The notes under the pieces were generated by a model that was given only the letters and a program-made list of their open reading frames with translations, was not told the origin of the DNA and searched no databases. The position numbers were made by a program, and so were the translations under genes. A DNA stretch of 64,000 nucleotides from Kiritimatiellia bacterium (lineage in GTDB: Bacteria > Verrucomicrobiota > Kiritimatiellia > RFP12 > UBA3636): assembly GCA_017481725.1 (NCBI GenBank), contig JAFUOX010000055.1, positions 1 to 64,000 of the forward strand, in the 5' to 3' direction. Below are positions 50,239 to 51,510 of the stretch, piece after piece; position 1 is the stretch's first letter, and each line of letters starts with the position of its first letter.

Positions 50239-50355
50239 AGGCGAGCACTAAAATACAACATAGTGCGATAAATCATACCATATCATCTATTGTTGTATTA
50301 TAATGTTAATCTAAATTTGAATGAAGCGATTTATGGAGAAGCGACTTAAATAGTA

Positions 50356-50405
50356 TGGAGAAGCGACTTCCAGTCGCTTTAAAGCGGCAGGATGCCGCTT
50401 CTCCA
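50356..50405. repeat. REP-like element, copy 1
   Basis: A 50-base cloverleaf-type palindrome. Outer arms are TGGAGAA and TTCTCCA. Inside are two hairpins, GCGACT-TCC-AGTCGC and GCGGCA-GGA-TGCCGC, joined by TTTAAA. Identical at 49 of 50 bases to 51212-51261. The repeat extends on both sides: to the left it includes an extra half-copy (from about 50330), and to the right CATTTATTATTGAGAATAAA. Confidence 0.9.
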
Positions 50406-50468
50406 CACATTTATTATTGAGAATAAAAAAGAGAGTTGTAATAACCTAATAGAAGTAATTCATTTTAT

Positions 50469-51209
50469 ATGAAAGAAAATCTAAATTTGAATGATGATGC
50501 GATTTATGGAGAAGTGACTTCCAGTCGCTTTGATAATAAGAAAATTAAGCTGCAGAATGCCGCTTCTCCTCGTTATATGTCTGATACTCCTATGGAGCAG
50601 ACTCGTGCAAATCTTCCGCATTGGAGTCAAGGGGAAACATGTATCTTTGTCACATTCAGACTTGCAGATTCGATACCGAAAGAGAATCGGATTCAATGGG
50701 GAGCGGAACGAGACGAATGGATGGACAAACATCCGCAACCGTGGGATGAAAATACGTCAATTGAATATAATGAACGCTTTGGAGGCAAATTAGAACAATG
50801 GCTTGATGATGGGTTTGGTTCTTGTGTATTAAAAGATTCCTGTTGTCGTGAAATTATTGAAAGAGCTCTTAGTTATTTTGACGGACAACGATATATTCTT
50901 TATGCATTTGTTGTTATGCCGAATCATGTTCACGTTTTGTTTGCACCATTGGCACCTCACACAATGTCAACAATTATTCAATCGTGGAAGAGTTTTACGG
51001 CTAGGATTATGAGAAAACGAATTGGAGGGATAGGTCCTTTTTGGCAGAAAGAGTCGTGGGATCGTCTAATACGTAGTGAATCGCATTTCCGATATGTAGC
51101 CAATTACATTCGTAATAATCCAGGAAAAAGTAATATACCTGTTTATGCTTCAGAAACTTGTGCGAAAATATGTAATTGGGATGACAGTATGGAGAAGCAA
51201 CTTAAATAG
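50469..51209 (+). CDS. REP-associated tyrosine transposase (RAYT)
   Basis: 246 residues as an open frame. Y1-transposase/HUH family: the metal-binding HxH is His153 and His155 in MPNHVHVLF, and the catalytic Tyr lies in RYVANYIRNNPGKS near residue 220. RAYTs process single-stranded REP sequences. The first about 36 codons lie on a degenerate REP copy and the last 8 codons (through the stop) are REP sequence too. The working start is therefore uncertain: ATG 50577 (MSDTPMEQT) lies just after the REP copy and is near where homologous sequence should begin. No clear ribosome binding site at either. Confidence 0.85.
   Translation: MKENLNLNDDAIYGEVTSSRFDNKKIKLQNAASPRYMSDTPMEQTRANLPHWSQGETCIFVTFRLADSIPKENRIQWGAERDEWMDKHPQPWDENTSIEYNERFGGKLEQWLDDGFGSCVLKDSCCREIIERALSYFDGQRYILYAFVVMPNHVHVLFAPLAPHTMSTIIQSWKSFTARIMRKRIGGIGPFWQKESWDRLIRSESHFRYVANYIRNNPGKSNIPVYASETCAKICNWDDSMEKQLK
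50507..50569. repeat. Diverged REP-like element within the RAYT gene start
   Basis: Same outer arms (TGGAGAA, TTCTCC) and hairpins (GTGACT-TCC-AGTCGC; GCTGCA-GAA-TGCCGC), with a longer middle. The 30 bases before it (AATCTAAATTTGAATG and onward) also match those before copy 1 (from about 50310). Confidence 0.75.
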
Positions 51210-51510
51210 TATGGAGAAGCGACTTTCAGTCGCTTTAAAGCGGCAGGATGCCGCTTCTCCACACCTTTTCCACCCCTTCATCCAACATTTATTATTGAGA
51301 ATAAAATGTGTGAAAAAATATTGTTGATAAACAAAACAACCCTAATTCTGTCTATAGTTCCCCTGCAAATTGCAAGCTAAATGAGTATAGCAATTTCAAA
51401 TTAATATGCAATTTTTCAAGTTTATTTTGCCTTGATTTGTGGTGTCTGATTTGGTTTAATTTGTGTGTGAGAATTTATTTATGTAATTTGTGATAATATG
51501 GTTATTTATA
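51210..51510. other. Intergenic region between RAYT and GT39-like gene
   Basis: 300 bases. The first 100 are REP-derived. The rest is AT-rich with no gene. TGCAAATTGCAAGCTAAATG at 51364-51383 is the exact reverse complement of 199-218. A promoter for the next gene is expected but no good match was found. Confidence 0.6.
51212..51261. repeat. REP-like element, copy 2
   Basis: 49 of 50 bases identical to 50356-50405, in direct orientation; the one change is in the loop of hairpin 1. A half-copy precedes it and supplies the RAYT stop codon. CATTTATTATTGAGAATAAA follows at about 51286 as after copy 1. Confidence 0.9.

What the first reader, a model, noticed from the sequence alone, without database searches (positions are those of the whole stretch)
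50310..51306. RAYT gene whose two ends are made of REP sequence
Two 50-base cloverleaf REP elements (49/50 identical) flank the gene in direct orientation, a third diverged copy lies under the first 36 codons, and a half-copy provides the last codons and stop. The flanks also share the 3' CATTTATTATTGAGAATAAA. The unit looks like a self-contained mobile cassette; the coding use of REP DNA at both ends is striking.
Basis: seen in the sequence. Interest (0 to 1): 0.6.

Follow-up and report, generated by a model that had tools for sequence, protein, structure and literature searches.

The report
Transposase gene ended by its repeats
A bacterial gene for an enzyme that handles short DNA hairpins (REP repeats) is bordered by those hairpins and uses hairpin DNA to code its own protein ends; the gene family is known, but in related bacteria the same gene turned out to sit, without breaking the reading frame, in the middle of unrelated enzymes.

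Summary
At 50308-51305, in a MAG whose order also holds Lentisphaerae/Verrucomicrobia MAGs, lies a single-copy RAYT (PF01797; motifs NHVH, WQ, YIRNNP; best PDB fold match is the RAYT-REP complex 4er8). It is flanked by two 48-nt GGAG...CTCC REP doublets (47/48 identical, cloverleaf fold, z about -6 to -7). A diverged doublet lies under codons 13-34 and a half REP codes the last residues. The genome holds 41 copies of the REP hairpin; two sibling species without the RAYT hold 2 and 0. New here: the upstream REP block is a collapsed RAYT copy, equal to the unit with 683 nt removed between two half REPs. The REP-coded ends are predicted disordered, but the edge of the N-terminal REP supplies a conserved proline. 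The start codon is unproven. This is a REPtron resembling TnpA-REP subclass 2.4; REPs overlapping RAYT genes and in-frame REP insertions are already published. Beyond the window, RAYTs of the same order sit in frame inside host enzymes, joined by REP-coded linkers, while orthologues in the same genus lack them. That argues against the published view that RAYTs do not move. Autonomous mobility of the window copy is not shown.

The parts
50308..50427 (+). Collapsed (internally deleted) RAYT copy: codons 4-18 of the RAYT, half REP, AAATAG, full REP doublet, tail CATTTATTATTGAGAATAAA
   Evidence: aligns end to end with the downstream unit after removal of 683 nt between half REPs 50505 and 51188 (score 95.0 against 77.5 for the 3' part alone)
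50357..50404 (.). Upstream REP doublet (double foot GGAG...CTCC, cloverleaf)
50469..51209 (+). RAYT gene (Y1/HUH transposase-like, 246 aa from ATG1, TAG stop)
   Evidence: Pfam PF01797 35 bits over cut-off 23; NCBIfam NF047646 RAYT 63 bits, below its cut-off of 80; Foldseek 4er8 E 4e-7
50508..50569 (.). Diverged REP doublet under codons 13/14-34, lengthened in the middle; its 3' edge gives 2 nt of the conserved Pro34 codon
50922..50933 (+). HUH motif Asn-His-Val-His (residues 152-155)
   Evidence: alignments A1 and A2
51042..51047 (+). Trp-Gln (residues 192-193); with Arg202 it has the spacing of the E. coli foot-reading residues W94, Q95, R104
   Evidence: invariant in 14 sequences; E. coli residues from PMC6006769
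51105..51122 (+). Catalytic Tyr213 motif YIRNNP
   Evidence: invariant Y213 and N217
51188..51203 (+). Half REP coding for the C-terminal residues (MEKQL), followed by AAATAG with the stop
51213..51260 (.). Downstream REP doublet (double foot GGAG...CTCC, cloverleaf)
51286..51305 (+). Shared tail CATTTATTATTGAGAATAAA, right end of the unit
   Evidence: family D4

Best explanation
This is a REPtron: a single-copy, apparently intact RAYT (TnpA-REP, subclass 2.4-like) with its cognate double-foot REPs. The protein probably binds single-stranded REP hairpins and cuts next to them, and so spread the ~40 REPs in this genome (inferred from homology, not shown). The gene has grown into its own REPs: it reads through a diverged REP doublet at its start and into a half REP at its end, giving floppy tails outside the catalytic fold. 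The REPs around it are recombination and processing hot spots. The 120-nt block upstream is a second copy of the unit that lost 683 nt between its N-terminal and C-terminal half REPs (or, read backwards, the REP-only state of the site).
For: PF01797 and RAYT family hits; fold match to 4er8; invariant HUH, Tyr, WQ and Arg202. 41 REP hairpin copies on both strands, 0 for the reversed control pattern, against 2 in G001, 0 in G002 and 0 in 16 other relatives. Compensatory pair changes at two of eight stem positions, 94.8% of cells paired against at most 45% when slid. Cloverleaf folding. Collapsed copy alignment. pLDDT below 50 exactly at residues 1-30 and 237-246, about 80 for residues 31-40. Pro34 invariant in 8 sequences of 38-52% identity, PR[FY] in eight loci, which argues for translation upstream of Met37. 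REP coding of the C-terminus is commoner in RAYTs of the order than in neighbouring ORFs: 12/34 against 6/68, P 0.002.
Against: No functional data. Dispersed REPs share only the left hairpin with the RAYT flanks; their second hairpin is different (GCGTGCGGTAGCACGC), so they may belong to a REP subfamily not made by this RAYT. G001, without a detected RAYT, keeps two REPs at a site orthologous to one in G000, so REPs there persist or predate. The genomes are incomplete (78-88%). With conservative start codons the N-terminal REP coding is not enriched in relatives (6/34 against 7/68, P 0.35). NCBIfam RAYT score is below cut-off.
Confidence: 0.8

Rival explanations
1. The unit is an autonomously mobile IS-like cassette (REP-RAYT-REP) that recently jumped here; REP-coded ends are its functional termini.
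For: Clean direct flanks with a shared tail; RAYT absent from both siblings; in relatives RAYTs sit inside genes whose same-genus orthologues lack them.
Against: Only one copy in the genome; the downstream neighbour is also not shared with siblings, so no exact empty site; the tandem collapsed copy is explained by REP-REP recombination.
Confidence: 0.25
2. The N-terminal REP is an untranslated leader: translation starts at Met37 and REP hairpins in the 5' leader regulate RAYT expression; only the C-terminal half REP is coding.
For: Met37 follows directly after the REP and two nearest relatives also have Met at this place (PRFMS); Di Nocera and colleagues warn that many 5' REP overlaps may not be coding (PMC3733652); residues 1-30 are unstructured; conservative starts remove the N-terminal enrichment.
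Against: PR[FY] before this position is conserved in relatives that have no Met there (L042, L056, L064, L123, L158), Pro34 is invariant in A2 and residues 31-40 are confidently folded. The other in-frame starts, ATG1, TTG7 and GTG16, all lie before the REP or inside it.
Confidence: 0.3
3. The RAYT is a decaying relic and its REP-coded ends are read-through junk.
For: Single copy, disordered tails, one stem mismatch in the REP under the gene (G-A pair).
Against: All catalytic and foot-reading positions invariant; frame intact across 246 codons; flanking REPs nearly identical.
Confidence: 0.1

Closest known systems
TnpA-REP subclass 2.4 (Bertels group 4), described in PMC6006769
   Same: NH[IFV]H, WQ and YIxNNP motifs; double-foot REPs; REPs inserted in frame in RAYT genes, in several relatives between HUH and Tyr
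   Different: Foot is GGAG/CTCC, not GT[AG]G; REP coding is at the two ends, not between HUH and Tyr; subclass profile not available to score
REPtrons with overlapping REPs (5'ov and 3'ov, PMC3733652) and RAYT stop codons touching REPs (PMC2817692)
   Same: REP overlaps gene ends
   Different: Here both ends at once, and a collapsed tandem copy beside it
REPINs (PMC3116915)
   Same: Two inverted REPs form the dispersal unit; single-copy RAYT
   Different: Dispersed copies in this genome are not the same doublet as at the RAYT; the second hairpin differs
Rickettsia palindromic elements and REPs in coding genes (discussed in PMC3733652)
   Same: Palindromic repeats read in frame inside proteins
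   Different: In the relatives found here a whole RAYT, not only a short repeat, is in frame inside the host protein

Membership tests
RAYT / TnpA-REP (class 2) | Y1 HUH domain with Y---NP signature | tested here: met
   PF01797 over cut-off; Y213-I-R-N-N-P
RAYT / TnpA-REP (class 2) | NCBIfam equivalog NF047646 at curated cut-off | tested here: not met
   63.1 bits against cut-off 80; close relatives also below, so the model does not cover this branch
RAYT / TnpA-REP (class 2) | Gene flanked by REPs that are dispersed in the genome | tested here: met
   41 hairpin copies, though with a different second hairpin
RAYT / TnpA-REP (class 2) | Fold of the REP-bound RAYT | tested here: met
   4er8 top PDB match, E 4e-7, TM 0.57 by target
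RAYT / TnpA-REP (class 2) | Low copy number per genome | tested here: met
   one copy
Subclass 2.4 (group 4) | NH[IFV]H / WQ / YIxNNP motifs | tested here: met
   against table in PMC6006769
Subclass 2.4 (group 4) | Long or double-foot REP with 5' GT[AG]G | tested here: inconclusive
   double foot met, tetranucleotide GGAG instead of GT[AG]G
Subclass 2.4 (group 4) | Best score with the subclass HMM | not testable with these tools
   profile not held
Autonomous insertion sequence (IS200/IS605) | Several near-identical copies | tested here: not met
   single copy
Autonomous insertion sequence (IS200/IS605) | Precise empty site in a relative | tested here: inconclusive
   not for the window locus; orthologues lacking the RAYT exist for relatives
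RAYT / TnpA-REP (class 2) | Single-strand REP binding and cleavage | not testable with these tools
   needs biochemistry

The most novel reading that the evidence does not exclude
In this order RAYT units do move, and REP DNA that stays open as protein code is what makes it tolerable: in-frame REPs in surface loops of enzymes act as landing pads, and whole RAYT genes enter there without breaking the host reading frame. The window RAYT, with REP-coded ends and a REP-only twin beside it, is a free-standing form of the same element.
Probability: 0.5. Interest if true: 0.72.

Novelty: new variant of a known kind. Interest (0 to 1): 0.5.

Why it matters
Published work holds that RAYTs are domesticated, single copy and incapable of moving themselves (PMC3116915, PMC2817692). 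RAYTs found in frame inside FAD oxidoreductase and glucuronate isomerase genes, with same-genus orthologues lacking them, make that question testable in sequence data. They also suggest a route by which palindromic repeats add domains to proteins. The window copy itself would be only a further REPtron in a little-sampled group.

Tried and rejected
Exact empty site of the window unit: left gene conserved in G001 and G002 (58% and 52% aa) but the right neighbour is not, so no junction could be read. Statistical claim that REP coding of the N-terminus is general in the order: dropped, because with the nearest start codon it is not enriched; an earlier looser count used the farthest ATG and overstated it. 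REPs inside genes of the window's own genome: none convincing, only short ORFs. Paper searches for RAYTs inside host enzymes gave nothing relevant; the libraries exclude most subscription papers, including Bertels 2017, so absence is weak. The idea that the upstream block is just a REP array was rejected by its match to RAYT codons 4-18.

Full report
Observation. The window holds an intact RAYT gene at 50469-51209. An 81-nt direct repeat (50332-50412 and 51188-51268, 96% identical) carries a half REP, AAATAG and a full 48-nt REP doublet on each side. The doublet is GGAG-hairpin-TA-hairpin-CTCC; both copies fold as single-strand DNA cloverleaves with z-scores of -6.1 and -7.2, and no match of the arms is expected by chance in the window. 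A diverged, lengthened doublet lies under codons 13/14-34, and the gene's last codons come from the downstream half REP; the stop is in the AAATAG behind it.

The upstream block is more than a flank. It begins with a copy of RAYT codons 4-18, then continues from the half REP as the 3' end of the gene does. Removing 683 nt from the downstream unit between its two half REPs gives a sequence that aligns end to end with 50308-50427, apart from a 3-nt and a 22-nt gap. So the locus is a tandem pair: one complete unit and one collapsed unit. The direction (deletion, or the REP-only state being older) is not determined.

Genome context. The RAYT is single copy; two further Y1-like proteins in the genome are distant. 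The hairpin GGAGAAGCGACTNNCAGTCGCTT occurs 41 times with up to two mismatches, on both strands, and the reversed control pattern never; sibling G001 has 2, G002 none, and 16 other relatives none. The two in G001 sit behind the same ribosomal protein operon as two in G000 (95% identical DNA). The dispersed copies share TATGGAGAAGCGACTTCCAGTCGCTTT with the RAYT flanks but have another second hairpin. Across 12 distinct hairpin variants, two stem pairs change on both sides and 94.8% of cells pair, against at most 45% in slid controls. The variants include arms chosen from the doublets, so this is modest evidence.

Protein. HUH (152-155), Trp192-Gln193, Arg202 and Tyr213 are invariant or nearly so in 14 relatives; W/Q/R have the spacing of the E. 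coli residues that read the GTAG foot (W94, Q95, R104; PMC6006769). AlphaFold2 with eight sequences gives mean pLDDT 73; only residues 1-30 and 237-246 are below 50, close to the REP-coded parts. The best PDB match is 4er8, the RAYT bound to a REP hairpin. Start codon: ATG1, TTG7 and GTG16 lie before or inside the REP, Met37 right behind it. Pro34, whose first two bases are the last two of the REP, is invariant in alignment A2, and PR[FY] is found in relatives that have no Met after it. I therefore favour a start before Met37, but it is not proven.

Relatives. In 162 genomes of the order, 40 carry RAYTs. Among 34 free-standing RAYTs, REP-like local repeats cover part of the C-terminal coding end in 12, against 6 of 68 neighbouring ORFs (P 0.002); the N-terminal figure is 6 against 7 of 68 and not significant. 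The controls come from the same loci and related genes were not thinned, so the P values are approximate.

RAYTs inside other genes. At least eleven RAYT cores lie within long open frames (539-1648 aa) with another protein family recognised: Eco57I-type methylases (three genomes), an FAD_binding_2 oxidoreductase (two), UxaC (two), EcoEI-type and SNF2-type helicases, a PFL-like enzyme, a DUF1156 protein; a CinA-RAYT end fusion is a separate case. For UxaC, four homologues in the same genus are uninterrupted at this loop or carry only short inserts, while G087 and G092 carry about 300 extra residues with REP-coded linkers; these genomes also have a second, ordinary UxaC. For the FAD enzyme, G084 and G086 (about 90% aa identity next to the site) have a short palindromic stretch in the same loop where G087 has a REP-RAYT-REP insert of about 820 nt. 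A tree of 47 cores needs 8 changes of the embedded/free label, at least 5 on well supported branches; gains and losses are not separated. The window RAYT falls with free-standing ones only.

Known versus new. RAYTs flanked by REPs (PMC2817692), REPs overlapping RAYT gene ends (PMC3733652) and REPs inserted in frame in subclass 2.4 tnpA-REP genes (PMC6006769) are published. The window unit is therefore a REPtron close to subclass 2.4, with a GGAG foot and a collapsed twin. I found no report, in the open library searched, of whole RAYTs in frame inside host enzymes; PMC6006769 set aside 'gene fusions or annotation errors'. Mechanism (landing on in-frame REPs by RAYT action, or homologous recombination between REPs) is inference; the host enzymes' activity is untested.

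Noticed in passing
L142 (G083), L143/L193 (G087); orthologues L195, L197: RAYT in frame inside an FAD_binding_2 oxidoreductase; same-genus orthologues hold only a short palindromic insert in the same loop.
   Followed up: yes
L144 (G087), L145 (G092); homologues L179-L182: RAYT in frame inside a second glucuronate isomerase gene, plus smaller REP-coded inserts at other loops (GQDARCPS / ATGETPVVPV peptides).
   Followed up: yes
L138, L147, L149: RAYT in frame inside Eco57I-like methylases, between the YTPREIV and DPACGSGAF motifs, in three genera; RAYTs form one clade.
   Followed up: partly
L148, L154: RAYT segments in permuted order within one open frame (C-terminal part before N-terminal part); partial tandem copies or a circular permutation.
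   Followed up: no
G000 contigs, e.g. L004-L030: Dispersed REPs sit in larger mosaics with further repeats (GGACGCAGAGACGCGGAGG type), and many lie within 450 nt of contig ends, so the assembly breaks there and copies are undercounted.
   Followed up: no
L097/L098 (G000:C71) and L078 (G001:C129): Two REPs conserved at the same place behind a ribosomal protein operon in two species, one without a detected RAYT.
   Followed up: partly
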